Shown: positions 18,389-34,046 of the stretch, in pieces
Numbering within the stretch: the first letter of the stretch is position 1
How the letters are laid out: each line of letters begins with the position of its first letter
DNA from: Pantoea sp.
GTDB lineage: Bacteria > Pseudomonadota > Gammaproteobacteria > Enterobacterales > Enterobacteriaceae
Assembly (NCBI RefSeq): GCF_028283705.1
Contig: NZ_JAPWKD010000008.1
Coordinates: 124,001 to 188,000 of the forward strand
Reading direction: 5' to 3'
Length of the DNA stretch: 64,000 bases
Made by a program: the position numbers and the translations under genes
The notes under the pieces: generated by a model
Databases searched by the model: none
What the model saw: the letters and a program-made list of their open reading frames with translations, nothing else
What the model was told of the DNA's origin: nothing

Positions 18389-18924
18389 TGGCGCGCCTGA
18401 TCTGGCTGACCGGGCCATCTGGTTCGGGGAAAGACAGCCTGCTCAACGCGCTGCGTGAAGCACCGCCGGAGCGTCTGGTGATTGCCCATCGCTACATTAC
18501 ACGCCCGGCGGATGCCGGGGGTGAGAACCATGTGGCGCTGAGCGAAGCGGAGTTTCGGCGGCGTGAGGCGCTCGGGTTGTTTGCCCTCAGCTGGCAGGCG
18601 CACGGTCTTAGCTATGGTCTGGGTGAAGAAATCGACCACTGGCTGGCACGCGATCTTAACGTGCTGGTCAATGGTTCGCGGCTGCATCTGCCGGTGGCGC
18701 AGCAACGCTACGGTAGCCAACTGCTGCCGCTGGTGTTGCAGGTGTCACCCGAGGTACTGGCGGCGCGTCTGCGGCAGCGTGGACGCGAAAGCGAGGCGGA
18801 GATCGCCCGCCGCCTCGCCCGTGCCGCTGAGCCGCTCCCGGCCCACAGCTTTCCGCTCAATAACGATGGCGCGCTGGCGGATACGCTGCGGCAACTGCGT
18901 TTGCTGCTGGAAAACCCCGCGTGA
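18388..18924 (+). CDS. phnN: PhnN, ribose 1,5-bisphosphate phosphokinase
   Basis: A 178-residue kinase (E. coli: 185) with the P-loop LTGPSGSGKDSLL at the N-terminus and RYITRPADAGGENH, a guanylate-kinase-like fold. It phosphorylates ribose 1,5-bisphosphate to PRPP, closing the C-P lyase pathway. ATG 18388 forms a TGATG junction with phnM. Its stop codon lies inside the left arm of a decayed REP element, so the last codons are shared with the repeat. phnP does not follow. Confidence 0.94.
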   Translation: MARLIWLTGPSGSGKDSLLNALREAPPERLVIAHRYITRPADAGGENHVALSEAEFRRREALGLFALSWQAHGLSYGLGEEIDHWLARDLNVLVNGSRLHLPVAQQRYGSQLLPLVLQVSPEVLAARLRQRGRESEAEIARRLARAAEPLPAHSFPLNNDGALADTLRQLRLLLENPA

Positions 18925-18977
18925 TGAATCACGCCGCTACAAATCGCACCCAACCGTAGCGGCGCGATTTATCGCGC
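18919..18977. repeat. GTAG-type REP pair, copy 3 (left arm decayed)
   Basis: The right arm (about 18956-18977) is intact with GCGCGATTTATCGCGC. The left arm from 18919 reads GCGTGATGAATCACGC and still pairs with itself. The left arm overlaps the end of phnN and supplies its TGA. The element separates the phnF-N block from the Pho box of phnC. Confidence 0.8.
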
Positions 18978-18991
18978 TGTTAGTGGGCACG

Positions 18992-19031
18992 CTGTCACGG
19001 TTTGATCATTTTGCTGTCATCAAGTGTTCAT
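18992..19031 (+). promoter_or_regulatory. Tandem Pho box and promoter of phnCDE
   Basis: Four 7-mers at exact 11-bp pitch: CTGTCAC (18992), TGATCAT (19003), CTGTCAT (19014) and TGTTCAT (19025). CTGTCAT is the exact PhoB half-site and all four end TCAT or TCAC. A possible -10, TAATAA, lies at 19044-19049, 12 bases after the last half-site, as in PhoB class promoters. This indicates a second phosphate-starvation promoter for the transporter genes. Confidence 0.82.
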
Positions 19032-19086
19032 CCCGTTTGGCCGTAATAAGCGGGCAATTCACACCTCAGATGAAACGGAGCGGAAT

Positions 19087-19917
19087 ATGGCACAGGCATT
19101 ACTGAAAACCGTGGTCGACAATCCTTATGTTCCGCACCTGCAGCAGGGCAACAAGGTGTTGTCGGTGCAGGGACTGTGCAAAGCGTACGGCGAAAACCGC
19201 GTACTGGATAATGTCAGTTTCGATCTGCATGCGGGGGAACTGGTGGCGGTGATTGGCCGCTCCGGCGCAGGCAAATCGACATTGTTACATATGCTGAACG
19301 GCACCATCTCAGCCAGCGAGGGTTCTATCCTCACCCAGCGTAGCGGCGAAGCGGAACGCAACGTGGTGGCACTGAACAGTCGCCAGATGCGTGAGTGGCG
19401 CAGCGAATGCGGCATGATTTTCCAGGATTTCTGCCTGGTGCCGCGCCTCGATGTGCTGACTAACGTGCTGCTGGGGCGTCTCAGCCAGACCTCCACACTG
19501 AAATCCTTCTTTAAAGTCTTTTCCGAAGCTGACCGCGCTCAGGCCATTGAGCTGTTGCAGTGGATGAACATGCTGCCGCAGGCGCTGCAACGCGCCGAAA
19601 ACCTGTCTGGTGGTCAGATGCAGCGCGTGGCGATTTGTCGCGCGCTGATGCAGAACCCGAAGATTCTGCTGGCGGATGAGCCGGTAGCCTCTCTCGACCC
19701 GAAAAACACCAAACGCATCATGGACGTGCTGCGCCAGGTCAGCGAGCAGGGCATCAGCGTGATGGTCAACCTGCACTCGATTGAACTGGTGAAAAACTAC
19801 TGCACCCGCGTCATCGGTATTCAGCGCGGCAAGGTGCTGTTTGACGGACATCCTTCTGAGTTGACCGACGGCCTGCTGCATGAGCTGTACGGCGACGAAA
19901 TTAACCAGCTCCACTAA
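19087..19917 (+). CDS. phnC: PhnC, phosphonate ABC transporter ATPase
   Basis: A 276-residue importer ATPase (E. coli: 262). Walker A is [16 protein letters not shown] near residue 60, the signature [15 protein letters not shown] and Walker [14 protein letters not shown]. It energises PhnE1/PhnE2. The ATG at 19087 has ACGGAG a few bases upstream. An N-terminal stretch of about 20 residues before the ABC core explains the extra length. It is the first gene after the second Pho box. Confidence 0.93.
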
Positions 19918-19943
19918 CTCCCACGGCAAGAGAATAACCACCA

Positions 19944-20873
19944 ATGAAACTGACCTCTTTAGCTTTACTGACTGGCGCTTTGATGGCTTTTGGCGTTAAC
20001 GCAGCGGATGCCCCTAAGCAACTTAACCTCGGGATTCTGGGTGGCCAGAACGCCACGCAGCAGATTGGCGACAACCAGTGTGTGAAAACTTTCTTCGACA
20101 AAGAGCTGAATGTTGACACCCAACTGCGTAACTCTTCTGACTACTCAGGCGTGATTCAGGGCCTGTTGGGTAACAAAATTGACCTGGTACTGAGCATGTC
20201 ACCGGCATCGTATGCCTCGGTCTACCTGCAGAACCCGAAAGCGGTCGATATCGTTGGTATCGTGGTGGATGACAAAGACGGTTCACAAGGTTACCACTCG
20301 GTGGTGATCGTTAAAGCGGACAGCCCGTACAAAAAGCTGGAAGACCTGAAAGGTAAATCCTTCGGCATGGCCGACCCGGATTCGACCTCTGGCTTCCTGA
20401 TGCCGAACCAGGCATTCAAGAAAGAGTTTGGCGGCACGGTGGATGATAAGTACAAAGGCACCTTCTCTAACGTGACCTTCTCCGGCGGCCACGAGCAGGA
20501 CATCCTCGGCGTGCTGAATGGTCAGTTTGACGGCGCGGTAACCTGGACTTCACTGGTGGGTGATTACAACACCGGTTACACCTCAGGTGCGTTTGGTCGT
20601 TTGATTCGTATGGACCACCCGGACCTGATGAAACAGATTCGCATCATCTGGAAATCACCGTTGATCCCGAACGGCCCAATCCTGGTGAGCAACAATCTGC
20701 CAGCCGACTTTAAAGAAAAAGTGGTGGCAACCATCAAGAAACTGGATAAAGAAGATCACAGCTGCTTTGTTAAAGCAGTGGGCGGTGAGCAGCATATCGG
20801 CCCGGCAACTGTCGCTGACTATCAGAACATCATTGATATGAAGCGTGACCTGATGAAGGGCAGCCGCGGCTAA
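19944..20873 (+). CDS. phnD: PhnD, phosphonate-binding periplasmic protein
   Basis: A 309-residue periplasmic binding protein with a signal peptide ending in GVNAADA (cleavage near residue 20). The Phosphonate-bd fold is clear: LVLSMSPASYASVY, SVVIVKADSPYKKLEDLKGK, FGMADPDSTSGFLMP (ligand Ser/Thr pocket) and SGGHEQDILGVLNGQFDGA. It delivers phosphonates to the permeases and is somewhat shorter than E. coli PhnD (338). A REP hairpin begins 10 bases after its stop. Confidence 0.93.
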   Translation: MKLTSLALLTGALMAFGVNAADAPKQLNLGILGGQNATQQIGDNQCVKTFFDKELNVDTQLRNSSDYSGVIQGLLGNKIDLVLSMSPASYASVYLQNPKAVDIVGIVVDDKDGSQGYHSVVIVKADSPYKKLEDLKGKSFGMADPDSTSGFLMPNQAFKKEFGGTVDDKYKGTFSNVTFSGGHEQDILGVLNGQFDGAVTWTSLVGDYNTGYTSGAFGRLIRMDHPDLMKQIRIIWKSPLIPNGPILVSNNLPADFKEKVVATIKKLDKEDHSCFVKAVGGEQHIGPATVADYQNIIDMKRDLMKGSRG

Positions 20874-20883
20874 CGCTTTCTCT

Positions 20884-20945
20884 GCGCGATAAATCGCGCC
20901 GCTACGAAATCGTGCACACTGCCGTAGCGGCGCAATTCATTGCGC
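20884..20945. repeat. GTAG-type REP pair, copy 4 (right arm decayed), inside the phn operon
   Basis: The left arm at 20884-20905 is intact. The right arm at 20924-20945 reads GCGCAATTCATTGCGC, with paired changes that keep its own small stem. It lies between phnD and phnE1 in one operon, where it can protect upstream phnD mRNA. Confidence 0.85.
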
Positions 20946-20993
20946 GTTAAATCGCATCGTTATGGTACGCATTCCAACCACAGGACCTCCCCT

Positions 20994-21857
20994 TTGACCG
21001 ATTTCGAACACTACTATCAACGCATCCGTCGTCAGCAAAAGCGTGACACGTTGCTGTGGTCGCTGTTGCTGGTGGCACTGTATCTTGCTGCGGGCAAAAT
21101 CGCGGAATTCAACCTGGTCACTGTCTGGCAATCATTGCCACATTTCTTTGATTACATTGGCGAAACCATGCCGGTGCTGCATTTTCCGGTGCTGTTTGCT
21201 GATGTGAAAACCGAAGGTTCCTTCGCGTATTGGGGCTATCGCCTGAATATTCAGTTGCCGCTGATCTGGGAAACCTTACAGCTGGCGATTTCATCAACGG
21301 TGATTGGCGTGGCTATCGCCGCCGGGCTGGCCTTTTTCGCCGCCGACAATACACAATCTCCCGCTGGCGTGCGTCTCGCCATTCGCGCGTTTGTCGCCTT
21401 TTTGCGCACCATGCCGGAACTGGCGTGGGCGGTGATGTTCGTGATGGCCTTTGGCATCGGTGCCATTCCCGGCTTTCTTGCGCTGGCATTGCACACTGTT
21501 GGCAGCCTGACCAAGCTGTTCTACGAATCGATTGAAAGTGCTTCCGACAAGCCGGTACGCGGCCTGGCCGCCTGCGGTGCCAGCAAATTGCAGCGCATGC
21601 GTTTTGCCTTCTGGCCGCAGGTCAAACCGACCTTCCTCTCCTACAGCTTTATGCGTCTGGAGATTAATTTCCGCTCCTCCACCATTCTGGGTCTGGTAGG
21701 GGCAGGGGGTATCGGCCAGGAGCTGATGACCAATATCAAACTCGACCGTTACGATCAGGTCAGCATTACGCTGCTGCTGATCATCGTGGTGGTGTCGCTG
21801 CTGGATACGATCTCTGGCTGGCTGCGCCGTCGCGTGGTGGAAGGAGAACGCGCATGA
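20994..21857 (+). CDS. phnE: PhnE1, phosphonate ABC permease subunit
   Basis: A 287-residue inner-membrane permease of the PhnE family with about six hydrophobic segments. The binding-protein-dependent transport loop is GLAACGASKLQRMRFAFWPQ, followed by the family-typical FRSSTILGLVGAGGIGQEL. No ATG fits the N-terminus; the best start is TTG at 20994 (MTDFEHYYQRIRRQQ), with AGGA about eight bases upstream. A more distal TTG at 20940 lies inside the REP and is unlikely. The stop overlaps the second permease gene by four bases (ATGA). Confidence 0.9.
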   Translation: MTDFEHYYQRIRRQQKRDTLLWSLLLVALYLAAGKIAEFNLVTVWQSLPHFFDYIGETMPVLHFPVLFADVKTEGSFAYWGYRLNIQLPLIWETLQLAISSTVIGVAIAAGLAFFAADNTQSPAGVRLAIRAFVAFLRTMPELAWAVMFVMAFGIGAIPGFLALALHTVGSLTKLFYESIESASDKPVRGLAACGASKLQRMRFAFWPQVKPTFLSYSFMRLEINFRSSTILGLVGAGGIGQELMTNIKLDRYDQVSITLLLIIVVVSLLDTISGWLRRRVVEGERA

Positions 21858-22738
21858 TTGCTCTGGCCCCGGATATCGGCAAACTGAAGCAGGAACACCC
21901 GGCGCTGTTTGCCGCGCAAAAGCGTTATCTGCGCCGCATTGCGCTGATCGCGCTGGCCGTGCTGCTCTACTACATCTTTTTCTTTGAAGTTTTTGGTATC
22001 GAATGGAGTCGCCTGTTGATTGGCTGCCAGCAGCTGGGACGTTATTTCCTGCGCATGTTTGTCTGGCAGGATTTCGCCAACTGGCCATTCGGTTATTACC
22101 TGTCGCAGATTGGCATCACGCTGGCGATTGTGTTTGCCGGTACCTTCACCGCGACGCTGCTGGCGCTACCGATTTCCTTCCTGGCGGCGCGTAACGTGAT
22201 GCACGACCCGCTTACCCGCCCGATTTCGCTGCTGATGCGTCGTGTACTGGATATATTGCGCGGCATCGATATGGCGATTTGGGGTCTGATCTTTGTGCGC
22301 GCGGTCGGCATGGGGCCGCTGGCCGGGGTGCTGGCGATTGTGATGCAGGACATTGGCCTGCTCGGCAAACTGTATGCTGAAGGACACGAAGCGGTGGAGC
22401 GTTCGCCGAGCCGTGGCCTGGGAGCCGTCGGGGCCAACAGCCTGCAAAAACACCGCTTCGGTATTTTCACCCAGTCGTTCCCGACTTTCCTCGCCCTCAG
22501 CCTGTACCAGATTGAATCCAACACCCGCTCGGCGGCAGTGCTGGGCTTTGTCGGCGCAGGTGGTGTCGGCCTGGTGTATGCCGAGAACATGCGCCTGTGG
22601 AACTGGGATGTGGTGATGTTTATCACCGTGATCCTCGCGGCGATCGTGATGATTATGGATGTTGTCTCCAGCCGTCTGCGTAAACGTTACATCACCGGGA
22701 AAGCGGTGCCGCTGTGGCAGCCCGCCGCGCGCGACTGA
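21854..22738 (+). CDS. phnE: PhnE2, second phosphonate ABC permease subunit
   Basis: A 294-residue permease paralogous to the preceding one, with the matching loop GLGAVGANSLQKHRFGIFTQ and SNTRSAAVLGFVGAGGVG. Where E. coli has one PhnE, this locus has two different permeases, presumably forming a heterodimer over PhnC. The last 47 bp overlap, tail to tail, the end of the sensor kinase gene on the other strand. Confidence 0.92.
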   Translation: MIALAPDIGKLKQEHPALFAAQKRYLRRIALIALAVLLYYIFFFEVFGIEWSRLLIGCQQLGRYFLRMFVWQDFANWPFGYYLSQIGITLAIVFAGTFTATLLALPISFLAARNVMHDPLTRPISLLMRRVLDILRGIDMAIWGLIFVRAVGMGPLAGVLAIVMQDIGLLGKLYAEGHEAVERSPSRGLGAVGANSLQKHRFGIFTQSFPTFLALSLYQIESNTRSAAVLGFVGAGGVGLVYAENMRLWNWDVVMFITVILAAIVMIMDVVSSRLRKRYITGKAVPLWQPAARD

Positions 22739-25268
22739 GCCGTTCACTGCGCTGCCAGGCGCGTTCCAGCGCCTGCACCAGCTGCGCCTGATGCCAGGGT
22801 TTTGCCAGCCGCTCACACAGCGGCAGCATCACCGGCGTCTGGCGCAAATCCTGTCCACTGATCAGCAGCGTCGCCAGTTGCGGCCACTGCTGCTGCGCCT
22901 GGCGGATCACATCGGCACCGTTGAGGTTGCCGGGTAGCATCAGGTCACTGATCAGCAGTTCGATATCTGGCGTCTGGCGCAGCAGCGTCAGTGCGCTTTC
23001 GCCATCGCCACACTCCAGCGTCAGGTAGCCCAGCTGATGTAAATGTTCGCACAACGTCTGGCGCACCGACGGTTCGTCATCCAGTACCAGCACCAGCCGG
23101 TCAGCACTGGCGCTCAGCAAGTGGGGCGCAACGACGGATGCGGGCTGTGCCACATCAGGAGCACGCGGCAGTAACAGGCGCACCGTGGTGCCCTGGCCGG
23201 GCGCGGTTTCCAGTTCGATTTGCCCGCCGGACTGACGGACAAAGCCATACACCATCGACAACCCCAGCCCGCTACCGCTGCCAATCGCTTTGGTGGTGAA
23301 AAACGGTTCGAACACCTGCGTCTGCACCTCGGCGGACATGCCGCATCCGTGGTCGATCACTTCAATGGTGACACGGTCGCCTTCGTCGCGTTGCTGATGC
23401 CAGACGCGCAGACGGATGGTGCCGCTCTGTTTTTCCATCGCATCGCGCGCATTGACCACCAGATTCATCAGCGCATTCTCCAGCTGCCCGGCGTCGATCC
23501 ACGCGGGCCAGCCGGGGCGCTCGGCCTCAATCACCAGTTGCTGGCCTGGCAGCAGCGAGTGCTGCAACAGGCCCTGCAAATTATCTACCAAATCGACCAC
23601 CGACACGGCGCGTGGGTAGAGTGCCTGCTTGCGTGAAAAAGCCAGCAGACGCTGGGTGAGCTGGGCGGCTCGGTCAGCCGCTTGTCTTGCGCGTTCGATA
23701 CGACTGGCGAGGCTGCCGGGTGGCAGTTGATCCACGGTAAGGGCCAGGCTGCCAATAATCACCGCCAGCAGATTGTTGAAATCGTGGGCCAGCCCGCCGG
23801 TGAGTTGTCCAACCGCCTTCATTTTCTGGCTATGCAGCAGCGCCTCTTCCAGTGCTTTGCGTGTGGTGCGTTCCAGCACGGTGTTGACCATGCCACGCCG
23901 TGGCACCGGGCTGAAACGCAGCTCCAGCGTGCGACCATCTGCCAGCCGCACTTCCTGGGCCTCGCCCAGCCCGTTCAGTTCAATCTCCAGCCGTTTCAGC
24001 AATTGCTGATAATGCAGGCCACGATGCAGTTCACGCGGCGCGATGCCCAGCAGTTGCGCGTATTGCGCATTCCACACCACCAGCCCGCCGCTGTTGTCGA
24101 ACAGGGCAAAACCATCACGCATCGCCAGAAAGGTGGACTCCAGCTGGTTACTTTTCTCTTTCAGCAGACGCGAGGTGTGTGCCAGCGAGGCGGTATTGCG
24201 CGCGAACACGTTAAAGGCACGCGCCAGATCCCCCAGCTCGTCACGTCGCGCCAGCCCGGGCACATTGACGCTTTTCTCCCCCTGCGCCAGCAACGTCATG
24301 GCGTGGGCGATGGCCGTCAGGCTGGAACCCAGGTTGCGATAAATGTAGTAACCGGCATACCCGGTGATCAGCAGCGCCAGCAGCATAAACAGGCCGATAA
24401 AGCCGATGATGGAGTCCAGCTCCTGATGGGTGGCCTGGCTGCGAGTGTCAGTTTGCTGCGCCACCAGCTGCACGTAATGGGTGATGTCATCGTTAAGCAT
24501 GGCCACCAGCGCTTTGATGCGATAGGTGGCGTAGGCAATGGTGATATCGCTCTGATCCAGCTCGGTGGCAACCGGCAGTAGTGCACGTTCGGTGCTGACC
24601 AGTTGCTGCACTTTATCCGCCAGTACCCCCTGCGTTGGCAGCGCTGACCAGGCATCGAATAGCGTATTCAGCTGGCGTACTGCTGCCTGTGGCGTAGTGG
24701 ACTGAATGGCGACGGTGAGCAGGCGGGTCGTTTGCTGGCGCAGGTCGGGGGAAAAGGGCTGCTGCACTGCCAGGCTATCGATATGGTTGAGCAGCAACTG
24801 AGCCTGCCACAGGCCACTCAGCATCCGGTTGCGTTGCAGATGGCGCTCATGGCCCTTGAGCAGCAGCTGATTGATGCTTTGCTCCAGCATCTGGCTGCGT
24901 TCACGGATGCGTTGCAGCAAGACCGGTTGCAGCAACGCCAGCGGTGCACGCGCCAGTTGATTCAGCGAGTGCTGCAACGCCTGCTGGGTTTGTTGCAGGC
25001 GCGCCGATTCACTTTGGTACTCCAGTGCACCCACCACCTGGGAAAGCCGTACTGCGGCGGTTGCCACGTTGGCGGTGTCGCGTGCCAGCGCCAGGCTGCC
25101 GCTCATATCGGCGAGGGTTTGTGCCTGCGCCTGTTCCTGAATGTGACCGGCGTGGCGAAATCCACTAATTGCCACCAGACCCACTGCCAGGGTGACGCAC
25201 ACCACCAGCAGATTAAACAGCAGCAGGCGACCGCGCGCGCCCACCTGCCAGTGCAGACTTCGACTCAT
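22692..25268 (-). CDS. TorS-like hybrid sensor histidine kinase
   Basis: An 858-residue hybrid kinase. TM1 is near residues 16-38, a helical periplasmic sensor of about 250 residues (TorS-like) follows, TM2 is near 288-310, then HAMP, a PAS-like segment (LAMRDGFALFDNSGGLVVWN, near 381), HisKA with GGLAHDFNN (phospho-His 495), HATPase with NLVVNARDAM and GSGSGLGL, and a C-terminal receiver with DDE near 730 and phospho-Asp 775 in LLISDLMLPG. No Hpt domain is present. The gene diverges from the sugar ABC operon, while its probable partner regulator sits at the far end of that operon. The sensor type suggests detection through a periplasmic binding protein, as TorS uses TorT. The stop lies inside phnE2. 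Confidence 0.9.
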   Translation of the reverse strand: MSRSLHWQVGARGRLLLFNLLVVCVTLAVGLVAISGFRHAGHIQEQAQAQTLADMSGSLALARDTANVATAAVRLSQVVGALEYQSESARLQQTQQALQHSLNQLARAPLALLQPVLLQRIRERSQMLEQSINQLLLKGHERHLQRNRMLSGLWQAQLLLNHIDSLAVQQPFSPDLRQQTTRLLTVAIQSTTPQAAVRQLNTLFDAWSALPTQGVLADKVQQLVSTERALLPVATELDQSDITIAYATYRIKALVAMLNDDITHYVQLVAQQTDTRSQATHQELDSIIGFIGLFMLLALLITGYAGYYIYRNLGSSLTAIAHAMTLLAQGEKSVNVPGLARRDELGDLARAFNVFARNTASLAHTSRLLKEKSNQLESTFLAMRDGFALFDNSGGLVVWNAQYAQLLGIAPRELHRGLHYQQLLKRLEIELNGLGEAQEVRLADGRTLELRFSPVPRRGMVNTVLERTTRKALEEALLHSQKMKAVGQLTGGLAHDFNNLLAVIIGSLALTVDQLPPGSLASRIERARQAADRAAQLTQRLLAFSRKQALYPRAVSVVDLVDNLQGLLQHSLLPGQQLVIEAERPGWPAWIDAGQLENALMNLVVNARDAMEKQSGTIRLRVWHQQRDEGDRVTIEVIDHGCGMSAEVQTQVFEPFFTTKAIGSGSGLGLSMVYGFVRQSGGQIELETAPGQGTTVRLLLPRAPDVAQPASVVAPHLLSASADRLVLVLDDEPSVRQTLCEHLHQLGYLTLECGDGESALTLLRQTPDIELLISDLMLPGNLNGADVIRQAQQQWPQLATLLISGQDLRQTPVMLPLCERLAKPWHQAQLVQALERAWQRSERLSRARRAATAAPLSR

Positions 25269-25412
25269 GCTGCGTCCTCCAACCGGCCCTTTTCTGCGCG
25301 AGTATAGAAGTGCCAGGTCGGCGCTTTATGACAAATATGAATGGTGGCTGACATTTTCCATTTATCTGTCATTGCTTAACTCGCTGCACGATTTGCCAGC
25401 AGGAGCGAACCG

Positions 25413-26918
25413 ATGGCGGCCACACCGATTCTGGAAATGCGGGAAATTACCCGGCGCTTTGGCAGTTTCTACGCGCTGAAAGGGGTGGATCTGACAGTCT
25501 GGCCCGGCGAGGTGCATGCGCTGATGGGGGAAAACGGCGCGGGCAAAAGCACGCTGATGAAAATTCTGGCCGGGGCATACACCGCCAGCAGTGGGGAAAT
25601 CCTGATTGATGGTCAACCCTATGTCATCAAAGGGCCGAAAGACGCGCTGGCGGCAGGCATCACCCTGATTTATCAGGAGATCAATCTGGCCCCCAATCTG
25701 ACGGTGGCGGAAAACATCTTTCTCGGTAGCGAAATCACCCGCGTAGGTCTGGTCAAACGTCGCCAGATGGCGGAAGAGGCGCAGCAGGTGATCGATCGCC
25801 TTGGTGCGCAGTTCAGCGCCACCGATCTGGTCAGCCGTCTCAGCATTGCCGAGCAGCAGCAGGTGGAGATCGCCCGCGCGCTGCATCGCAACAGCCGCAT
25901 CCTGGTGATGGATGAACCCACCGCCGCGCTCTCCAACCGTGAAACCGAGCAGCTGTTTGCCTTGATCAAACGTCTGCGCAGCGCGGGGATGGCGATCATC
26001 TATATCAGCCACCGCATGGCGGAGGTGTATGAACTCTCCGACCGCGTCAGCGTGCTGCGTGATGGTCAGTACGTCGGCAGTCTGACGCGTGATCAACTCA
26101 ACGCCAGCGAACTGGTGCGTATGATGGTTGGGCGTCCGCTCAGCGATCTGTTCAACAAAGATCGCACCATTCCCTTCGGCGAAATTCGTCTCGCGGTGAA
26201 CCATCTGACAGACGGCAAAAAAGTCCATCCCAGCAGCCTGGCGGTGCGCGCCGGGGAGATTGTCGGGCTGGCGGGTCTGGTGGGGGCCGGGCGCAGCGAA
26301 CTGGCGCAGCTGATTTTTGGTGTACACAAATCGAGTGGCGGCGAGGTCTGGATTGACGGCGAGAAGGTCAAAATCCACTCCCCGCGTGAAGCCATCGCCC
26401 ACGGCATTGGCTTTCTCACCGAGAACCGTAAAGAGCAGGGGTTGTTTCTCGAACTGGCCGCCCAGGAAAACATTGTGATGGCGACGCTGGAACGTGATGC
26501 CAGCTATGGCCTGCTTAATCGCCGCAAAGGCCAGAAGATCGCCAGTGAGGCGATCCAGACTCTCAACATTCGTGTTCCCCATGCCCAGGTGCGCGCCGGT
26601 GGCCTGTCCGGCGGCAATCAGCAGAAGCTGCTGGTGTCGCGTTGGGTGGCGATTGCCCCGCGCATCCTGATCCTCGATGAACCCACGCGTGGCGTGGATG
26701 TCGGTGCCAAAAGTGAAATCTACCGCATGATGAGCCAGCTGGCGCAGCAGGGCGTGGCAATCCTGATGATCTCCAGTGAACTGCCGGAAGTGGTGGGGAT
26801 GAGCGACCGGGTATACGTGATGCGCGAAGGCACCATTGCCGGTGAACTGAGCGGTGAAGAGATTAGCCAGGAAAACATTATGACACTGGCCACCGGCGCA
26901 CAGCCGGTCGAGCCTTGA
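25413..26918 (+). CDS. Sugar ABC transporter ATPase (RbsA/MglA type, two domains)
   Basis: A 501-residue fused ATPase of the carbohydrate-uptake transporter 2 family. The first half has [14 protein letters not shown], the signature [13 protein letters not shown] and Walker [12 protein letters not shown]. The second half has a degenerate A loop (LVGAGRSEL), the signature [15 protein letters not shown] and [15 protein letters not shown]. This pattern is diagnostic of ribose/galactose type importers. The ATG at 25413 has AGGAG seven bases upstream. It heads the operon, divergent from the sensor kinase, so the 144-bp gap holds both promoters. Confidence 0.93.
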
Positions 26919-26928
26919 GGAGACGCGG

Positions 26929-27912
26929 ATGACCAGTGAAACCACCCGTATGAAAAACCCGACGCTGAAACGTGCGTTGATGGCGGATCTGTTGCAGACC
27001 GTCGGCATCCTGCCAATTTTGATTCTGATCGTCGCGGTGTTTGGTTTTGTTGCCCCCAACTTTTTTACTGAAGCCAACCTGCTGAACATCACCCGTCAGG
27101 CATCAATTAACATCGTGCTGGCGGCAGGCATGACCTTTGTCATTCTCACCGGCGGCATTGATTTGTCGGTCGGTTCGATGCTCGGCACCACGGCGGTGGT
27201 GGCGATGGTGGTCTCGCTCGACCCGGCGTTTGCCAGCCTGACCATCCCGGCGGCGCTGGGGGCGGGCCTGATCATGGGGCTGTTCAACGGCCTGCTGGTG
27301 GCCTGGGCCGGACTGCCGCCGTTTATCGTCACCCTCGGCACCTACACCGCCTTGCGTGGCGCGGCTTATCTGCTGGCGGACGGCACTACGGTGATTAACT
27401 CCGACATTAACTTTGAGTGGATAGGCAATGGCTATATTGGGCCGATTCCGTGGCTGATTGTCATTGCCTTTGCGGTGATTGCCTTGTGCTGGTTCATTCT
27501 GCGCCGCACTACGCTTGGGGTTCATATCTACGCGGTGGGCGGCAATATGCAGGCGGCACGTCTCACCGGCATCAAGGTCGGGGCGGTGCTGGCGTTCGTC
27601 TATGCCGTCAGTGGCCTGCTGTCCGGGCTGGGCGGGTTGATGAGCGCCTCGCGGCTATACAGCGCCAACGGCAACCTCGGGGTGGGCTACGAGCTGGACG
27701 CGATTGCTGCGGTGATCCTCGGCGGCACCAGCTTTGTCGGCGGTATCGGCACCATCACCGGCACGCTGATTGGTGCGTTGATTATCGCCACGCTGAACAA
27801 CGGCATGACGCTGATGGGGGTGTCGTACTTCTGGCAACTGGTGATTAAGGGGGGAGTGATCATTATCGCCGTGTTGATCGACAAGTACCGTACCCGGCAT
27901 CACGTCGGTTGA
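26929..27912 (+). CDS. Sugar ABC transporter permease (RbsC type)
   Basis: A 327-residue permease of the CUT2 family with 8-10 hydrophobic helices. Family motifs include NILAAG-like SINIVLAAGMTFVILTGGID, LSVGSMLG, PPFIVTLGTYTALRGAAYLL and GTSFVGGIGTITGTLIGALI. As usual in this family it probably works as a homodimer. It starts 10 bases after the ATPase stop behind a GAGGAG ribosome site. A REP pair follows its stop and separates it from the binding-protein gene. Confidence 0.93.
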   Translation: MTSETTRMKNPTLKRALMADLLQTVGILPILILIVAVFGFVAPNFFTEANLLNITRQASINIVLAAGMTFVILTGGIDLSVGSMLGTTAVVAMVVSLDPAFASLTIPAALGAGLIMGLFNGLLVAWAGLPPFIVTLGTYTALRGAAYLLADGTTVINSDINFEWIGNGYIGPIPWLIVIAFAVIALCWFILRRTTLGVHIYAVGGNMQAARLTGIKVGAVLAFVYAVSGLLSGLGGLMSASRLYSANGNLGVGYELDAIAAVILGGTSFVGGIGTITGTLIGALIIATLNNGMTLMGVSYFWQLVIKGGVIIIAVLIDKYRTRHHVG

Positions 27913-27925
27913 AAGAGAAAAAGAC

Positions 27926-27987
27926 GCGCGATAAATCGCGCCGCTACGGGATGGCGCACGATTTTGTAGCGGCGCGATTTATCGCGC
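27926..27987. repeat. GTAG-type REP inverted pair, copy 5, inside the sugar operon
   Basis: Both arms match the consensus (27926-27947 and 27966-27987). The element begins 13 bases after the permease stop and ends 38 bases before the start of the binding-protein gene. It may act as a 3' mRNA barrier for the ATPase-permease transcript or a partial terminator. Confidence 0.9.
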
Positions 27988-28025
27988 AATGCAATACCAA
28001 CAAAAAAAGCAGGAGAACATCGACT

Positions 28026-28964
28026 ATGCGTTTTAATCCGATTATCACCGGACTGCTGGCGGCCACGCTTCTCAGCGCACCGCTGGTCCAGGCCAAAGAG
28101 TTAAAAGCCATTGGTGTCACCGTCGGCGACCTCGCCAACCCGTTCTTCGTGCAGATCACCAAAGGGGCGGCATTGGAAGCACGCAAGCTGGCGGGAGATG
28201 ACGTGAAGGTGACGCTGGTCTCCAGCGGTTACGATCTCGGCCAGCAGGTGGCGCAAATCGACAACTTTATTGCCGCCAAAGTGGACATGATCATCCTCAA
28301 CGCTGCTGACTCGAAAGGGATCGCGCCTGCCGTTAAACGCGCCCGTGATGCCGGGATCGTGGTGGTGGCGGTGGACGTGGCCGCTGAAGGTGCCGATGCC
28401 ACCATCACCTCCGATAACACCGCAGCAGGGGCGATGGCCTGTAAATACATCTCTGACCGCCTGAAAGACAAAGGCAACGTGGTGATCATTAACGGACCGC
28501 CGGTTTCAGCGGTGCAGAACCGCGTGGAAGGCTGCATGAACGAGTTCAAAACCCACCCGGATATCAAGATCCTGTCCTCCAACCAGAACGCCAAAGGCAG
28601 CCGTGAAGGTGGGCTGGAAGTGATGACCGGCCTGCTGTCGGCTAACCCGAAAATTGATGCGGTGTTCGCCATTAACGATCCAACCGCCATCGGCGCGGAT
28701 TTAGCCGCCAAACAGGCGCAGCGCCACGAATTCTTTATTGTTGGCGTCGATGGCAGCCCGGACGGTGAAGAGGCGCTGAAACGCAAAGGTTCACTGTTTG
28801 TCGCCACCCCGGCGCAGGACCCGCAGGTGATGGCGGCGAAAGCGGTGGAGATCGGTTATGACATCCTGCAAGGCAAACCTGCGCCGGATAAGCCAGTGCT
28901 GATCCCGGTGTCGATGATCGACCGCAACAATGTCAGCAGCTACAAAGGCTGGACGGTGAAATAA
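28026..28964 (+). CDS. Periplasmic sugar-binding protein (RbsB/ChvE class)
   Basis: A 312-residue periplasmic binding protein of the Peripla_BP_4 type. The signal peptide is MRFNPIITGLLAATLLSAPLVQA-like with cleavage near residue 23 (VQA before KEL). Conserved parts are ANPFFVQITKGAALEARKLA, AAKVDMIILNAADSKGIAPA, VEGCMNEF and FAINDPTAIGADLAAKQA. The ATG at 28026 is preceded by AGGAGAA; longer open frames would run through the REP. It may both feed the permease and present the sugar to the hybrid kinase. A stem-loop begins eight bases after its stop. Confidence 0.93.
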   Translation: MRFNPIITGLLAATLLSAPLVQAKELKAIGVTVGDLANPFFVQITKGAALEARKLAGDDVKVTLVSSGYDLGQQVAQIDNFIAAKVDMIILNAADSKGIAPAVKRARDAGIVVVAVDVAAEGADATITSDNTAAGAMACKYISDRLKDKGNVVIINGPPVSAVQNRVEGCMNEFKTHPDIKILSSNQNAKGSREGGLEVMTGLLSANPKIDAVFAINDPTAIGADLAAKQAQRHEFFIVGVDGSPDGEEALKRKGSLFVATPAQDPQVMAAKAVEIGYDILQGKPAPDKPVLIPVSMIDRNNVSSYKGWTVK

Positions 28965-28971
28965 CCGACGC

Positions 28972-28994
28972 GGGCGGTGCGCCATGGGCCGCCC
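28972..28994 (+). other. Stem-loop after the sugar-binding protein gene
   Basis: GGGCGG at 28972-28977 pairs with CCGCCC at 28989-28994 around an 11-nt loop, starting eight bases after the binding-protein stop. No T tract follows, so it is better read as a 3' mRNA-protecting hairpin or partial attenuator than a terminator. Confidence 0.5.
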
Positions 28995-29022
28995 CCACTT
29001 TCCACTGACCGGAGACGCAGTG

Positions 29023-29706
29023 ATGCAACGTTCGGAAGTGAATACCATTCTGCAACTCACCCGTGAATTCTTTATGCGCCAGGATGTCCATCTGCCCAGC
29101 TGGGCCGATTACGGCCTGAGCCAGTGGCGTGCGCTGGATAAGCCAGCGGCCGACGAGCTGCTGGCGCTGCACCTCGGCTGGGATGTCACCAGCTTTGGCG
29201 CGCAGGATTTCTTTCAGACGGGTTTAACCCTGTTCACCCTGCGTAACGGTTCGCGCGGCGGCAAGCCGTGGGCGAAACCCTACGCGGAAAAGATCATGCA
29301 TGTGCGGGAAGGGCAGGTGACGCCGATGCACTACCACCCGCAAAAGATGGAAGACATTATCAATCGTGGCGGCGGCAACCTGATTGTGACACTGCACAAT
29401 CGTGATGGCGATCGGCTGGCCAACACACCGGTGAACGTCACCCTCGATGGCATCCGTCAGACCCATGCTGCTGGATCACAACTGCGCCTGTCGCCGGGGG
29501 AGAGCGTCACCCTGGTGCCGGGTATCTGGCACAGCTTCTGGGGCGAAGAGGGTTATGGCGACGTGCTGGTGGGGGAGGTTTCCATGCCGAACGATGACGA
29601 GCACGACAATGTTTTTCTTACCCCGCTGGCGCGCTTCAACCCGATTGATGAGGATGAAGATCCGCGCTGGCTGCTGTGTAACGAATATGCCCGCTGGCTG
29701 GACTGA
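29023..29706 (+). CDS. D-lyxose/D-mannose-type ketol-isomerase (cupin)
   Basis: A 227-residue protein matching the D-lyxose isomerase family (DUF1498 cupins, about 228 residues), which interconverts D-lyxose and D-xylulose and, more weakly, D-mannose and D-fructose. The metal site is visible as MHYHPQKMEDIINRGGG (His, His, Glu) and a late His in PGIWHSFWGEEG. The ATG at 29023 follows GGAGA at seven bases; an in-frame ATG at 28984 lies within the stem-loop. It lies between transporter and aldolase genes, suggesting that the imported sugar is an aldose made into a ketose. Confidence 0.85.
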   Translation: MQRSEVNTILQLTREFFMRQDVHLPSWADYGLSQWRALDKPAADELLALHLGWDVTSFGAQDFFQTGLTLFTLRNGSRGGKPWAKPYAEKIMHVREGQVTPMHYHPQKMEDIINRGGGNLIVTLHNRDGDRLANTPVNVTLDGIRQTHAAGSQLRLSPGESVTLVPGIWHSFWGEEGYGDVLVGEVSMPNDDEHDNVFLTPLARFNPIDEDEDPRWLLCNEYARWLD

Positions 29707-29718
29707 AGGAGCAACGAT

Positions 29719-30579
29719 ATGGCACTGATCTCACTGGCGCAGGGCCTGGCTCATGCGCAACAAAACGGTTATGCCCTCGGCGCGTTTAACGTGCTCGATA
29801 CCCACTTTCTGCGTGCCCTGTTCCATGCGGCAGAGCAGCAGCGTTCGCCGTTTATCATCAATATCGCCGAAGTGCATTTTAAGTATGTCAGCCTCGATCA
29901 TCTGATTGCGGCCATCCGCACAGAGGCGGCATTGCACGATATTCCGGTGGTGCTTAACCTCGATCACGGCCTGCATTTCGAGGCGGTGATGCAGGCGATC
30001 CGTCTCGGTTTTACCTCAGTGATGTTTGATGGTTCCACCCTCAGTTATGACGAGAATGTGCGCCAGACCCAGGAAGTGGTGAAGATCTGCCACGCGCTCG
30101 GGGTGTCGGTGGAAGCGGAACTCGGCGCGGTCGGCGGGGATGAAGGTGGTGCGTTGTTTGGTGAAGCGGACAGCGACAAATTTACCGATCCCCGACTGGC
30201 GGCGGAGTTTGTGCGCAGCACCGGCATTGATTGTCTGGCGGTGGCGATTGGTAATGCGCATGGCAAATACAAAGGCGAACCGAAACTCGATTTCGACCGG
30301 CTGGCGGCGATCCGCGATGCGACGCGCGTGCCGCTGGTGCTGCACGGTGGTTCCGGCATCAGCGATGCGGATTTCCGTCACGCCATCAGTCTGGGTATCC
30401 ATAAAATCAATTTCTACACCGGCATGTCTCAGGCGGCGCTGGGGGCAATTGAGAGCCAGATTGCCCAGCGTGAAGCGCGCTACGATGCCTTTGCCGAACT
30501 GCTGATGGCAGTGGAGCGCGATATCGCCAACGTGGTGGCGCAGCAGATGCGGGTATTTGGCAGCGCCGGGAGAGCCTGA
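29719..30579 (+). CDS. Class II ketose-phosphate aldolase
   Basis: A 286-residue zinc-dependent aldolase of the FbaA/GatY/KbaY family. Zinc ligands are seen in LNLDHGLHFE, AIGNAHGKYKG and LVLHGGSGISD, with EAELGAVGGDEGG as the second-metal Asp/Glu block and HKINFYTGMS near the phosphate site. It would cleave a ketose phosphate to dihydroxyacetone phosphate and an aldehyde. GatY-like size, coupled with a PfkB kinase one base downstream, favours a 1-phosphorylated ketose. Starts 12 bases after the isomerase stop. Confidence 0.9.
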   Translation: MALISLAQGLAHAQQNGYALGAFNVLDTHFLRALFHAAEQQRSPFIINIAEVHFKYVSLDHLIAAIRTEAALHDIPVVLNLDHGLHFEAVMQAIRLGFTSVMFDGSTLSYDENVRQTQEVVKICHALGVSVEAELGAVGGDEGGALFGEADSDKFTDPRLAAEFVRSTGIDCLAVAIGNAHGKYKGEPKLDFDRLAAIRDATRVPLVLHGGSGISDADFRHAISLGIHKINFYTGMSQAALGAIESQIAQREARYDAFAELLMAVERDIANVVAQQMRVFGSAGRA

Positions 30580-30580
30580 G

Positions 30581-31633
30581 ATGGTGGCACGCAGCGGCAT
30601 CTTAGCGGCAGGCAGCATGCTGGTGGATCATGTGCAGCGTATCAGCCACTGGCCGGAGCAGGGCTGGCTGGCCGAAATCCACCACAGCGAAAAATGTAGC
30701 GGTGGTGCGGTGCCGAATGTGTTATTCACCCTGGCACGTATGCAGATCAACCTGCCGCTGGCGGCTGTCGGGATGATTGGTGAGGACAGTGACGGCGACT
30801 ACCTGGTGCAACTGCTGGACCAGCATCATGTTGAACGACGTTTTGTCCAGCGTATCCGCAGCGTGAATACCGCCATGACCCAGGTGATGACCACGCCCGA
30901 TGGGCAGCGCACCTTCTTCCATGCGCGGGGAGCCAATGCGCAGCTCGATCTGGCGCAGTTTGCCACGGTGAATACCGATCATCGCATCTTCCATCTGGGG
31001 TATCTGCTGCTGCTGGATGCCCTCGATGTGCCGGATACAACCTGGGGCACGCGCAGCGCACAGTTGCTGGCGCAGATGCAGCAGCGCGGTTATCTGACCT
31101 CACTCGATCTGGTGTCGCGTGCCGGGGAGTATCAGGCATTGGTGGTGCCCGCGTTACGCTGGCTCGACTATCTGGTGATTAACGAACTGGAAGCGCAATC
31201 GCTCACCGGTATCAGCCTGCGCAGTACACAGGGACTGGCAGCGCCCGCCAGCTTTGCTGCCGCTGCCCGTTGGCTGGCGCAGCAAGGGGTGCGTCAGCGC
31301 GTGGTGATCCATGCCCCCGAGGGCGCATGGGGGTTGCAGGTCGGTGGTGAAGGGCACTGGCAACCGGCGTGGCAGTTACAGCCGGAGGAGATTGTCGGCA
31401 GCGTTGGCGCAGGGGATGCCTTCTGTGCCGGGGTGCTGTATGCCAGCCACCAGGGCTGGCCGATGACCGACACCTTAAAGCTGGCGCATACCTGCGCCTG
31501 TTTCAATTTGCAGGCGGCCAATGCGCTGGACGGCACCCGCCCTTTGAGCGAGATGCAGCGCTGGATGGGTCAGGCGATTTGCGTGACCAGCGCTACCGAC
31601 GCCGGGCGCATCACATCAGCGGAAAAAACATAA
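30581..31633 (+). CDS. PfkB family carbohydrate kinase
   Basis: A 350-residue ribokinase-fold sugar kinase. The N-terminal substrate block is CSGGAVPNVLFTLARMQ with VGMIGEDSDGDYL, and the C-terminal signature with the catalytic Asp is VGSVGAGDAFCAGVLY. It should phosphorylate the ketose made by the isomerase before aldol cleavage. ATG 30581 lies one base after the aldolase stop. The last 64 bp overlap, tail to tail, the response regulator gene on the other strand; the tail after the kinase signature is longer than usual. Confidence 0.9.
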   Translation: MVARSGILAAGSMLVDHVQRISHWPEQGWLAEIHHSEKCSGGAVPNVLFTLARMQINLPLAAVGMIGEDSDGDYLVQLLDQHHVERRFVQRIRSVNTAMTQVMTTPDGQRTFFHARGANAQLDLAQFATVNTDHRIFHLGYLLLLDALDVPDTTWGTRSAQLLAQMQQRGYLTSLDLVSRAGEYQALVVPALRWLDYLVINELEAQSLTGISLRSTQGLAAPASFAAAARWLAQQGVRQRVVIHAPEGAWGLQVGGEGHWQPAWQLQPEEIVGSVGAGDAFCAGVLYASHQGWPMTDTLKLAHTCACFNLQAANALDGTRPLSEMQRWMGQAICVTSATDAGRITSAEKT

Positions 31634-32316
31634 CCGAGGCCGCGGATGGTGCGAATCAGGCTGGGCTGGTGCGGATTCATTTCAATCTTGCGCCGCAGCC
31701 GCATAATCAACACATCAATGGTGCGATCAAACACATCCAGGGTTTCGCTGTGGGTGAGTTCCAGCAATTGATCACGCGTCAGCACTTTGCGTGCATGGCA
31801 CACCAGCGCGCGCAGCAGCGCATACTCGCCCTGGGTGAGCGGCACACTTTCGCGCTGGGGGTTGAACAACTGGCAACGTGCTTCATCCAGCCGCCAGCCA
31901 TTAAATTGCCAGCCATCATCCTGAAGGTTGTCCGGTTGCGCCAGCCGTCCGCAACGGCGTAACGCGGCACGGGCGCGTGCCACCACCACGCGGGGATTGA
32001 AGGGTTTGGCAATATAATCGTCCGCGCCCATTTCCAGCCCGACCACCATATCCGCTTCCGATCCCATGCCGGTCAGCATGATCACCAGCAGTTCGGGCCG
32101 TTGTCGTTGCATCTGCTGCAACACCAGCAGGCCGTTGGTGTCCGGCAGCATCATATCCAGCATGACCAGCGAAATTTCCGGATGCGCCGCCAGTAAGGTC
32201 AGCGCGTCTTTGCCCTGGTGGCAGCTATAAACGGTAAAAACATGTTCACTCAACACATCATGCAGCAGTTCGCAGACGGCACGATCGTCATCCACTACCA
32301 GAATTGCGGGCTTCAT
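31570..32316 (-). CDS. OmpR/PhoB-type response regulator
   Basis: A 248-residue two-domain regulator. The receiver has DDDRAVCELLHDVL at the start, phospho-Asp in LVMLDMMLPDTNG (near 54), Thr in MLTGMG and Lys in YIAKPFNP. The winged-helix effector domain has LTQGEYALLRALV, FDRTIDVLIMRLRRKIE and IRTIRGLGYVFSA. No other kinase is near, so the hybrid sensor kinase across the sugar operon is the likely partner. The 3' end overlaps the kinase gene by 64 bp. Confidence 0.92.
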   Translation of the reverse strand: MKPAILVVDDDRAVCELLHDVLSEHVFTVYSCHQGKDALTLLAAHPEISLVMLDMMLPDTNGLLVLQQMQRQRPELLVIMLTGMGSEADMVVGLEMGADDYIAKPFNPRVVVARARAALRRCGRLAQPDNLQDDGWQFNGWRLDEARCQLFNPQRESVPLTQGEYALLRALVCHARKVLTRDQLLELTHSETLDVFDRTIDVLIMRLRRKIEMNPHQPSLIRTIRGLGYVFSADVMRPASVALVTQIA

Positions 32317-32574: not shown

Positions 32575-32744
32575 CCCGGCATGGCATAGCAATTGCTATG
32601 AGGACTGAGGGGAAAGGAGTTTGACTACAAGGCGGATCGATGGCAGAGCATGCAGCCCCGTCTGCTTTTTCCCGAAACAATAACGCGCATGCACACCCCA
32701 TTGGCAAGAGAACGCACGTCAGTGACGTCTCCCCATCACGAGAG

Positions 32745-34046
32745 ATGATGATGTTAGAAAAACTATTCAAGCTAAAAGCGCACAACACAACGGTCCGCAC
32801 CGAAGTTATTGCGGGCATAACCACCTTCCTGGCAATGGCCTATATCCTGTTCGTTAACCCAAGCATCCTCGGTGCCACTGGCATGGATAAGGGTGCGGTC
32901 TTTGTGGCGACCTGTCTGGCGGCGGCGATTGGCTGTGTCCTGATGGGCCTGATTGCCAACTACCCGATTGCGCTGGCACCGGGTATGGGCCTCAACGCCT
33001 TCTTTACTTACACAGTGGTACTGCATATGGGTTACACCTGGCAAATCGCGCTGGGTGCGGTATTCCTCTCTGCCTGTATCTTCTTTGCTTTGTCGGTGTT
33101 CAAAATTCGTGAATGGATTATTGCCAGCATTCCGTTGCCATTGCGCGCCGGGATTGCGGCGGGTATCGGCCTGTTCCTGGCGCTGATTGCGCTGGAAGGG
33201 GCGGGTATCGTGGTGGATAACCCGGCGACGCTGGTGGGTCTGGGTGATCTGACCAAGCCGGGTCCACTGCTGGCACTGCTGGGCTTTGTCATCATCGTGG
33301 TGCTGGAAGCGCGTCGCGTTACCGGTGCGGTGCTGATCGGTATTCTGATCGTCACCTTCCTGTCGATGGGCATTGGCCTGACGCCGTTTGGTGGCGTGTT
33401 CTCTGCACCGCCGTCAATCGCCCCGACTTTCCTGCATCTGGATATCGCGGGTGCCTTTAACGTCGGCCTGGTGAGCGTGATTTTTGCCTTCCTGTTTGTG
33501 GACGTGTTCGACAACACCGGTACGTTGCTGGGTGTGACGAAGCGCGCCGGTCTGGCGGATGAGCAGGGTAACGTGCCGAAAATGGGCCGTGCGCTGATTG
33601 CCGACAGTGCGGCAGCATTGTTTGGTTCACTGCTGGGTACCTCAACCACCACCAGTTATGTGGAATCGGCAGCGGGCGTCAGCGCCGGTGGCCGTACCGG
33701 TCTGACGGCGATTGTGGTTGCCATTCTGTTCCTGCTCAGCCTGTTCTTCTCGCCGCTGGCGGGTAGCGTGCCGGTATTCGCAACGGCTCCGGCGCTGCTG
33801 TTTGTCGCCGTACTGATGGCATCCGGCCTGGCGGAGATTGACTGGAAAGACATCACCACTGCAGCCCCGGTCACGGTGACTGCGCTGACCATGCCGCTGA
33901 CTTACTCCATCGCCAACGGTATTGCGTTTGGTTTTATTACCTGGACGGTAGTGAAACTGCTGAGCGGTCGTACTAAAGAGGTGAATGCGGCGCTGATTAT
34001 TATGTCGATCCTGTTTGTGATTAAACTCGGTTGGTTGAGTGCGTAA
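32745..34046 (+). CDS. NCS2 (AzgA-type) purine permease
   Basis: A 433-residue inner-membrane nucleobase:proton symporter with about 14 helices. Similarity to E. coli AdeP/GhxP type proteins is plain: RTEVIAGITTFLAMAYILFV, NPSILGATGMD, ALAPGMGLNAFF, FLFVDVFDNTGTLLGVTKRAGL and SYVESAAGVSAGGRTGLTA. The GTSTTTSYVES region is the substrate site. Start is uncertain among ATGs at 32745/32748/32751; an open frame to 32640 would add 35 unconserved residues. Two PurR boxes upstream suggest repression when hypoxanthine or guanine is plentiful. The substrate is adenine, hypoxanthine or guanine. Confidence 0.9.
   Translation: MMMLEKLFKLKAHNTTVRTEVIAGITTFLAMAYILFVNPSILGATGMDKGAVFVATCLAAAIGCVLMGLIANYPIALAPGMGLNAFFTYTVVLHMGYTWQIALGAVFLSACIFFALSVFKIREWIIASIPLPLRAGIAAGIGLFLALIALEGAGIVVDNPATLVGLGDLTKPGPLLALLGFVIIVVLEARRVTGAVLIGILIVTFLSMGIGLTPFGGVFSAPPSIAPTFLHLDIAGAFNVGLVSVIFAFLFVDVFDNTGTLLGVTKRAGLADEQGNVPKMGRALIADSAAALFGSLLGTSTTTSYVESAAGVSAGGRTGLTAIVVAILFLLSLFFSPLAGSVPVFATAPALLFVAVLMASGLAEIDWKDITTAAPVTVTALTMPLTYSIANGIAFGFITWTVVKLLSGRTKEVNAALIIMSILFVIKLGWLSA

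What the first reader, a model, noticed from the sequence alone, without database searches (positions are those of the whole stretch)
22692..32316. Sugar uptake-isomerase-kinase-aldolase module bracketed by a hybrid kinase and a response regulator
The plus-strand operon encodes ATPase, permease, binding protein, lyxose/mannose-type isomerase, class II aldolase and PfkB kinase. A TorS-like hybrid kinase lies divergently at its start and an OmpR-type regulator convergently at its end. A coherent route would be aldose to ketose, to ketose 1-phosphate, to dihydroxyacetone phosphate plus an aldehyde; D-lyxose/D-xylulose or D-mannose/D-fructose fit the isomerase. Sensing may go through the binding protein, as in TorT-TorS or ChvE-VirA.
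Basis: inference. Interest (0 to 1): 0.75.

Follow-up and report, generated by a model that had tools for sequence, protein, structure and literature searches.

The report
Sugar operon with its own sensor
This stretch of a Pantoea-like genome carries the same eight genes, in the same order and with nearly the same control site, as a known sugar-use locus of E. coli O157:H7, so it likely senses, imports and isomerises sugars such as D-lyxose or D-mannose; the module is known, but it is spread well beyond that E. coli group, and its sensor is predicted to read the sugar through the transporter's binding protein.

Summary
Observation confirmed. Window 22692-32316 holds a divergent hybrid kinase, six plus-strand genes (ABC ATPase, permease, binding protein, lyxose/mannose isomerase, class II aldolase, PfkB kinase) and a convergent OmpR-type regulator. 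It is the orthologue of the EHEC locus lmvK-lmuXYZIAK-lmvR (Yang et al. 2023, PMC10128022), needed there for normal growth on D-lyxose: same eight genes, order and orientation, beside phn genes in both. The LmvR footprint repeat (ATATGA-N3-ATATGA) recurs at 25326-25340 with one mismatch and, with 0-2 mismatches, in all 36 loci first scanned (34 distinct); its 14-base core occurs exactly once in the 6.24-Mb genome.
In 394 genomes of the order, the kinase sensor was found in 20, the regulator in 18 (all among the 20), and the binding protein in 19 of the 20. Four loci of the window's genus lack aldolase and kinase; one other locus lacks all three enzymes but keeps transporter, sensor and regulator.
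The modelled sensor domain best matches the TorS sensor fold, with PilJ and McpS close behind; this fits but does not prove sensing through the binding protein. Verdict: new member of a known kind.

The parts
22692..25268 (-). LmvK orthologue: hybrid histidine kinase, 858 aa (helical sensor region before HAMP at 309, PAS_7, HisKA with H495, HATPase_c, receiver with D775; no HPt found)
   Evidence: sensor model; E. coli O157 orthologue in two tblastn pieces, 59% (C-terminal) and 52% (N-terminal)
25326..25340 (+). Predicted LmvR operator TTATGACAAATATGA (direct repeat), about 73 nt before the ATPase start
   Evidence: exact 14-base core once in the own genome; matches the EHEC footprint repeat ATATGA-N3-ATATGA (PMC10128022) with one mismatch
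25413..26918 (+). LmuX orthologue: sugar ABC transporter ATPase
   Evidence: 80% to E. coli O157
26929..27912 (+). LmuY orthologue: permease
   Evidence: 86% to E. coli O157
28026..28964 (+). LmuZ orthologue: periplasmic sugar-binding protein (likely start 28026)
   Evidence: 86% to E. coli O157; solved relative 4rwe, E 3.4e-162
29023..29706 (+). LmuI orthologue: D-lyxose/D-mannose isomerase (likely start 29023)
   Evidence: NF051472 above cut-off; 3kmh/3mpb; 60% to E. coli O157
29719..30579 (+). LmuA orthologue: class II ketose-phosphate aldolase
   Evidence: NF005284 above cut-off; 76% to E. coli O157
30581..31633 (+). LmuK orthologue: PfkB/ribokinase-family sugar kinase (likely start 30581)
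   Evidence: 59% to E. coli O157
31570..32316 (-). LmvR orthologue: OmpR/PhoB-type response regulator (D54); 3' end overlaps the kinase gene by 64 nt
   Evidence: 69% to E. coli O157

Best explanation
The eight genes at 22692-32316 are the orthologues of the E. coli O157:H7 lmvK-lmuXYZIAK-lmvR sugar locus, and by that orthology LmvK is predicted to sense a D-lyxose/D-mannose-type aldose and pass phosphate to LmvR, which would bind the conserved repeat at 25326-25340 and switch on uptake and isomerisation of the sugar. Inferred steps: LmuXYZ imports the aldose; LmuI makes the ketose (D-lyxose to D-xylulose, D-mannose to D-fructose); D-xylulose would leave through the cell's own xylulokinase, while LmuK and LmuA form an optional branch (ketose phosphate, then DHAP plus an aldehyde). 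The sensor would most likely be worked by sugar-loaded LmuZ docking on the TorS-like helical sensor domain of LmvK. Shown here: orthology, order, operator sequence, co-occurrence. Shown by others in EHEC: induction by both sugars, growth on lyxose, LmvR footprint. For LmuZ-LmvK contact, the phosphate route and the aldolase reaction I saw no test in the papers found.
Confidence: 0.83

Rival explanations
1. LmvK binds the sugar directly in its helical sensor domain, as McpS is solved with malate or succinate; LmuZ serves transport only.
Against: Among the loci mapped, none with an intact kinase and transporter lacks LmuZ; L136 keeps transporter plus two-component pair without any of the enzymes; L150 couples a second binding protein to the kinase gene.
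Confidence: 0.35
2. The natural substrate is another aldose (for example a plant sugar) and lyxose/mannose are side substrates of the isomerase.
For: PMC10128022 cites a Km of 19.8 mM for LmuI against 1.34 mM for ManA and says lyxose occurs rarely in nature. LmuZ and permease are far better conserved than the isomerase (76-82% against 48-51% to Pasteurellaceae).
Against: Both sugars induce the EHEC operon and lyxose growth needs lmuI and lmuXYZ; the isomerase passes the lyxose/mannose model.
Confidence: 0.35
3. Phosphate reaches LmvR through an unlinked HPt protein (H-D-H-D relay) rather than directly from H495 with the receiver as a gate, as proposed for VirA.
For: The receiver Asp is kept in 35 of 36 rows, the other being cut short; the EHEC paper draws an 'unknown Hpt'. 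HPt genes elsewhere in the genome were not searched for.
Against: No HPt domain in the eight proteins, 4-25 residues after the receiver in complete rows, and no gap inside the module longer than 144 nt (coordinates). The VirA receiver, in a hybrid kinase that works with VirG, was reported to control VirG activation (abstract of PMC4705274).
Confidence: 0.4

Closest known systems
LmvK/LmvR and LmuKAIZYX of EHEC (island OI167; PMC10128022)
   Same: Same eight genes, order, strands, phn neighbourhood and LmvR repeat; phosphorylated H and D residues kept.
   Different: The window's LmvK has a PAS segment of about 98 aa that the E. coli form lacks; kinase and isomerase are only about 60% identical; flanks are phn transport genes and a purine-type permease (named by eye) rather than yjdP and yjcS.
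TorT-TorS-TorR of E. coli and Vibrio
   Same: Modelled sensor fold; a periplasmic binding protein and an OmpR-type regulator work with the kinase (recalled).
   Different: LmvK has no HPt; scores far below the TorS model; here the binding protein also belongs to a transporter.
ChvE-VirA-VirG of Agrobacterium
   Same: Hybrid kinase ending in one receiver, OmpR-type regulator, sugar signal through the binding protein ChvE (abstract; transporter link recalled).
   Different: Far below the VirA-like and VirG models (203 against 647; 172 against 344); different targets.
CuaD-CuaS-CuaR of Ruminiclostridium (PMC10384115, abstract)
   Same: A second binding protein coded beside a two-component pair, as in L150.
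   Different: Different sugar (cellobiose); no homology test was made here.

Membership tests
Lmv/Lmu locus | Eight orthologous genes in the order lmvK(-) lmuXYZIAK(+) lmvR(-) | tested here: met
   all eight, 52-86% identity to E. coli O157:H7
Lmv/Lmu locus | LmvR direct repeat upstream of lmuX | tested here: met
   one mismatch at 25326-25340; 14-base core exact and unique in the genome
Lmv/Lmu locus | Phospho-acceptor H in kinase and D54 in regulator | tested here: met
Lmv/Lmu locus | LmvR site before its own gene (autoregulation) | tested here: inconclusive
   best match 4 mismatches in the window, 3 in E. coli where autoregulation was reported
Lmv/Lmu locus | Induction by and growth on lyxose or mannose | not testable with these tools
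   shown only for EHEC
D-lyxose/D-mannose isomerase (NF051472) | Score above curated cut-off | tested here: met
   412 bits, cut-off 350
TorS (TIGR02956, NF008543) | Score above curated cut-off | tested here: not met
   100 bits against 676.5; 63 against 982
TorS | C-terminal HPt domain (recalled as defining) | tested here: not met
   no Pfam domain after the receiver, about 25 residues left in the window's protein
TorS | Helical sensor fold of TorS | tested here: met
VirA/VirG | Scores above curated cut-offs | tested here: not met
   203 against 647; 172 against 344
Binding-protein-assisted kinase sensing | Physical contact of LmuZ with LmvK | not testable with these tools
   single-chain prediction only; gene-content support

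The most novel reading that the evidence does not exclude
LmuZ is a two-job protein: it feeds the ABC transporter and, when sugar-loaded, docks on the TorS-fold sensor of LmvK as the true receptor of the Lmv system, an ancestral three-part sugar sensor of Enterobacterales and Pasteurellaceae of which the EHEC 'virulence island' is only one retained copy. In L150 the receptor role has split off into a second binding protein translationally coupled to the kinase.
Probability: 0.5. Interest if true: 0.55.

Novelty: new member of a known kind. Interest (0 to 1): 0.35.

Why it matters
The EHEC locus was described as a pathotype-associated, horizontally gained island whose sensor mechanism is unknown. 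The same module with the same operator sits beside phn genes in Pantoea and in several other loci of the family, and away from them in the Pasteurellaceae stretches seen, so its basic job is likely sugar use and its age likely greater than EHEC. The natural variants (no aldolase and kinase; no enzymes at all; a second binding protein) give concrete, safe ways to test how the kinase reads the sugar.

Tried and rejected
Kinase-aldolase branch as the required route: set aside as optional, because lmuK and lmuA are dispensable on lyxose in EHEC and both are missing, with the isomerase kept, in L006, L007, L011 and L131. The transporter tree puts L006, L007 and L131 in one clade (support 1.00) and L011 elsewhere, which suggests at least two losses; whether the genes moved elsewhere in those genomes was not tested.

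TorS or VirA family membership: rejected by score and, for TorS, by the missing HPt. Recent transfer into EHEC only: not favoured, because the E. coli locus groups with loci of other, unnamed genera of its family and yjdP and/or phnP flank 7 of those 12 loci too (L133-L135, L143-L146; none seen for L132, L136, L140-L142); no formal species-tree comparison was made. In E. coli, 401 of 5426 complete genomes hold at least 80% of the module, among them isolates listed from chicken, pig and pigeon (30 of 412 matching records were listed, so serotypes were not counted). My first E. coli search matched 4043 of 5426 genomes but only 1 over 80% of the query, so its count was not used.

Other LmvR sites in the own genome: three one-mismatch sites (the backwards control pattern gave one match at the same tolerance) all lie inside open reading frames, one of them over the probable start of its frame; not convincing. 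LmvR autoregulation site: no good match. Class-wide sensor search: 4 of 369 genomes including the own one, the other three weak (E 5e-8 to 8e-7); near each of the three kinases is a gene that looks by eye like a solute-binding protein, a lead only. Sigma-70 scan of the promoter region: none found. Paper searches by Z-number locus tag gave nothing that I used; Pantoea with D-lyxose and sole carbon source gave no paper. Of 214 papers holding one of the Lmv/OI167 terms, 20 were listed, and among those only PMC10128022 holds lmuKAIZYX or OI167.
Full report
What is there. Profile searches name a hybrid histidine kinase, a sugar ABC transporter (ATPase, permease, binding protein), a D-lyxose/D-mannose isomerase above its curated cut-off, a ketose-1,6-bisphosphate aldolase above its cut-off, a PfkB kinase and an OmpR/PhoB-type regulator. 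The window lies at G000:C15:124001-188000 of a 6.24-Mb genome; the first 320 residues of the kinase are 98-99% identical to proteins that sources name Pantoea cypripedii or Pantoea sp. (P0002-P0004).

It is a known module. E. coli O157:H7 and O55:H7 carry the same eight genes in the same order and orientation between phnP-yjdP and yjcS. Identities of the O157:H7 locus to the window are 80% (ATPase), 86% (permease), 86% (binding protein), 60% (isomerase), 76% (aldolase), 59% (PfkB), 69% (regulator), and for the kinase 59% and 52% in two pieces. This locus was characterised in EHEC EDL933 as lmvK, lmvR and lmuKAIZYX (PMC10128022; I read sections 5, 7, 8 and 12 and passages of others). There, deletion of lmvK, lmvR, lmuI or lmuXYZ impaired microaerobic growth on lyxose; lmuK and lmuA were dispensable; LmuK had fructose kinase activity; mannose and lyxose induced the operon; a mannose growth role appeared only with lmvR overexpressed in a manA mutant. 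LmvR protects a 22-nt stretch holding ATATGA-N3-ATATGA. The words Pantoea, Yersinia and periplasmic do not occur in its main text, and in what I saw the binding protein is not discussed as a part of the sensor.

The control site is conserved. In the window, TTATGACAAATATGA lies at 25326-25340, about 73 nt before the ATPase gene. A scan of up to about 260 nt before the ATPase gene found the repeat with 0-2 mismatches in 36 of 36 loci (window plus 35; 34 distinct, since L139 repeats L009 and L149 repeats L071). Base shuffles of each stretch reached the same mismatch count in 0 to 9.3% of 300 trials, the highest in Pasteurellaceae. The two mapped loci left out of that scan were checked later: L147 has it with 2 mismatches, L150 does not. 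With two mismatches allowed, the whole window has 4 sites against 2.4 expected (24 of 100 shuffles reach 4), so place, conservation and low mismatch count carry the weight. The 14-base core TATGACAAATATGA occurs exactly once in the own genome; with one mismatch there are three more, against one for the pattern read backwards.

Kinase and regulator travel with the operon. In one sample of 394 genomes of the order: sensor domain in 20, binding protein at E up to 1e-90 in 20, isomerase at E up to 1e-20 in 26, regulator at E up to 1e-65 in 18. All 18 regulator genomes are among the 20 sensor genomes; 19 of 20 binding-protein genomes are; 18 of 26 isomerase genomes are (one a fragment), the other 8 being of one family (f3). 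The thresholds were mine, and only the best 5 or 6 candidates per genome were scored. The exceptions are informative: G256 and G236 are decayed loci (L147, L148); G080 (L136) has kinase, transporter and regulator but no isomerase, aldolase or kinase; G110 (L150) has a related but different arrangement.

Variants. L006, L007, L011 (named Pantoea) and L131 (same genus, unnamed) lack aldolase and PfkB but keep the isomerase; the transporter tree suggests at least two losses. The own genome has a xylulokinase (615 bits, cut-off 380) and ManA (398 bits, cut-off 116), so D-xylulose from lyxose has an exit without LmuK and LmuA. The PAS segment of LmvK is present in the Pantoea, Erwinia and Mixta rows, in Edaphovirga, in genus g6 and in all Pasteurellaceae rows but L053, and absent in the E. 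coli-type rows. In four Pasteurellaceae loci (L015, L016, L053, L137) and the decayed L148 the regulator sits right behind the binding protein; in the two whose next gap I read (L015, L137) a gene that looks by eye like a ROK sugar kinase follows.

Phosphate route. H495 is kept in 36 of 36 aligned kinases, D775 in 35 of 36 (one is cut short), and D54 in 35 of 35 regulators; two rows in each set repeat another. Only 4-25 residues follow the receiver in complete rows, so there is no HPt on the protein. The EHEC authors draw an unknown HPt. The VirA receiver was reported to control VirG activation (abstract of PMC4705274), which is my preferred analogy, untested here.

Age. Of 14 Pantoea, Erwinia and Mixta loci mapped besides the window, 13 show phn genes directly upstream of the kinase (L139 repeats L009); the fourteenth, L006, begins inside the kinase gene. 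In the other clade yjdP and/or phnP flank the E. coli locus and 7 of 12 further loci. No phn neighbour was seen in L012 or in the Pasteurellaceae stretches. In E. coli, 401 of 5426 complete genomes hold at least 80% of the module; 382 of the 412 matching records are at 99% identity or more, and the listed rows include many O157 and some other isolates. This fits an old locus with many losses better than a gain special to EHEC, though no formal species-tree test was made.

Verdict. Confirmed observation, interpretation largely right, and already explained in outline by published work on an orthologue. What is left open, and worth a bench test in laboratory strains, is the sensing step and the purpose of the aldolase branch.

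Noticed in passing
17252-22738: A phn gene group (phnM and phnN by match to E. coli; phnC, phnD and two phnE-like permeases by eye) ends directly against the kinase gene; the last permease and the kinase overlap tail to tail by 47 nt. The phn neighbour recurs in other Pantoea loci and in E. coli.
   Followed up: partly
L150 9801-10742 (reverse-complement coordinates): A second sugar-binding protein gene overlaps the stop of a hybrid kinase gene by 4 nt, followed by a small kinase-like gene (by eye) and an OmpR-type regulator; looks like a dedicated receptor.
   Followed up: partly
L136 1432-8293: Transporter, hybrid kinase and regulator kept with the LmvR site (1 mismatch), but isomerase, aldolase and kinase all missing from the locus.
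   Followed up: partly
L005 5381-6426: About 1 kb of extra DNA splits the ATPase gene in Mixta mediterraneensis.
   Followed up: no
L161 6374-9813: A gene that looks by eye like a solute-binding protein ends 3 nt before a kinase gene whose N-terminus weakly matches the LmvK sensor profile.
   Followed up: no
window 22692-25268, PAS segment about residues 372-470: The PAS segment of LmvK is missing in the E. coli clade, in Cricetibacter (L053) and, by length and Pfam list, in a few Pantoea-like proteins (P0016, P0017, P0020), suggesting repeated loss.
   Followed up: partly
32640-34046: A purine-type permease gene (named by eye) follows the regulator and is found downstream of it in all 14 Pantoea, Erwinia and Mixta loci mapped.
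   Followed up: no
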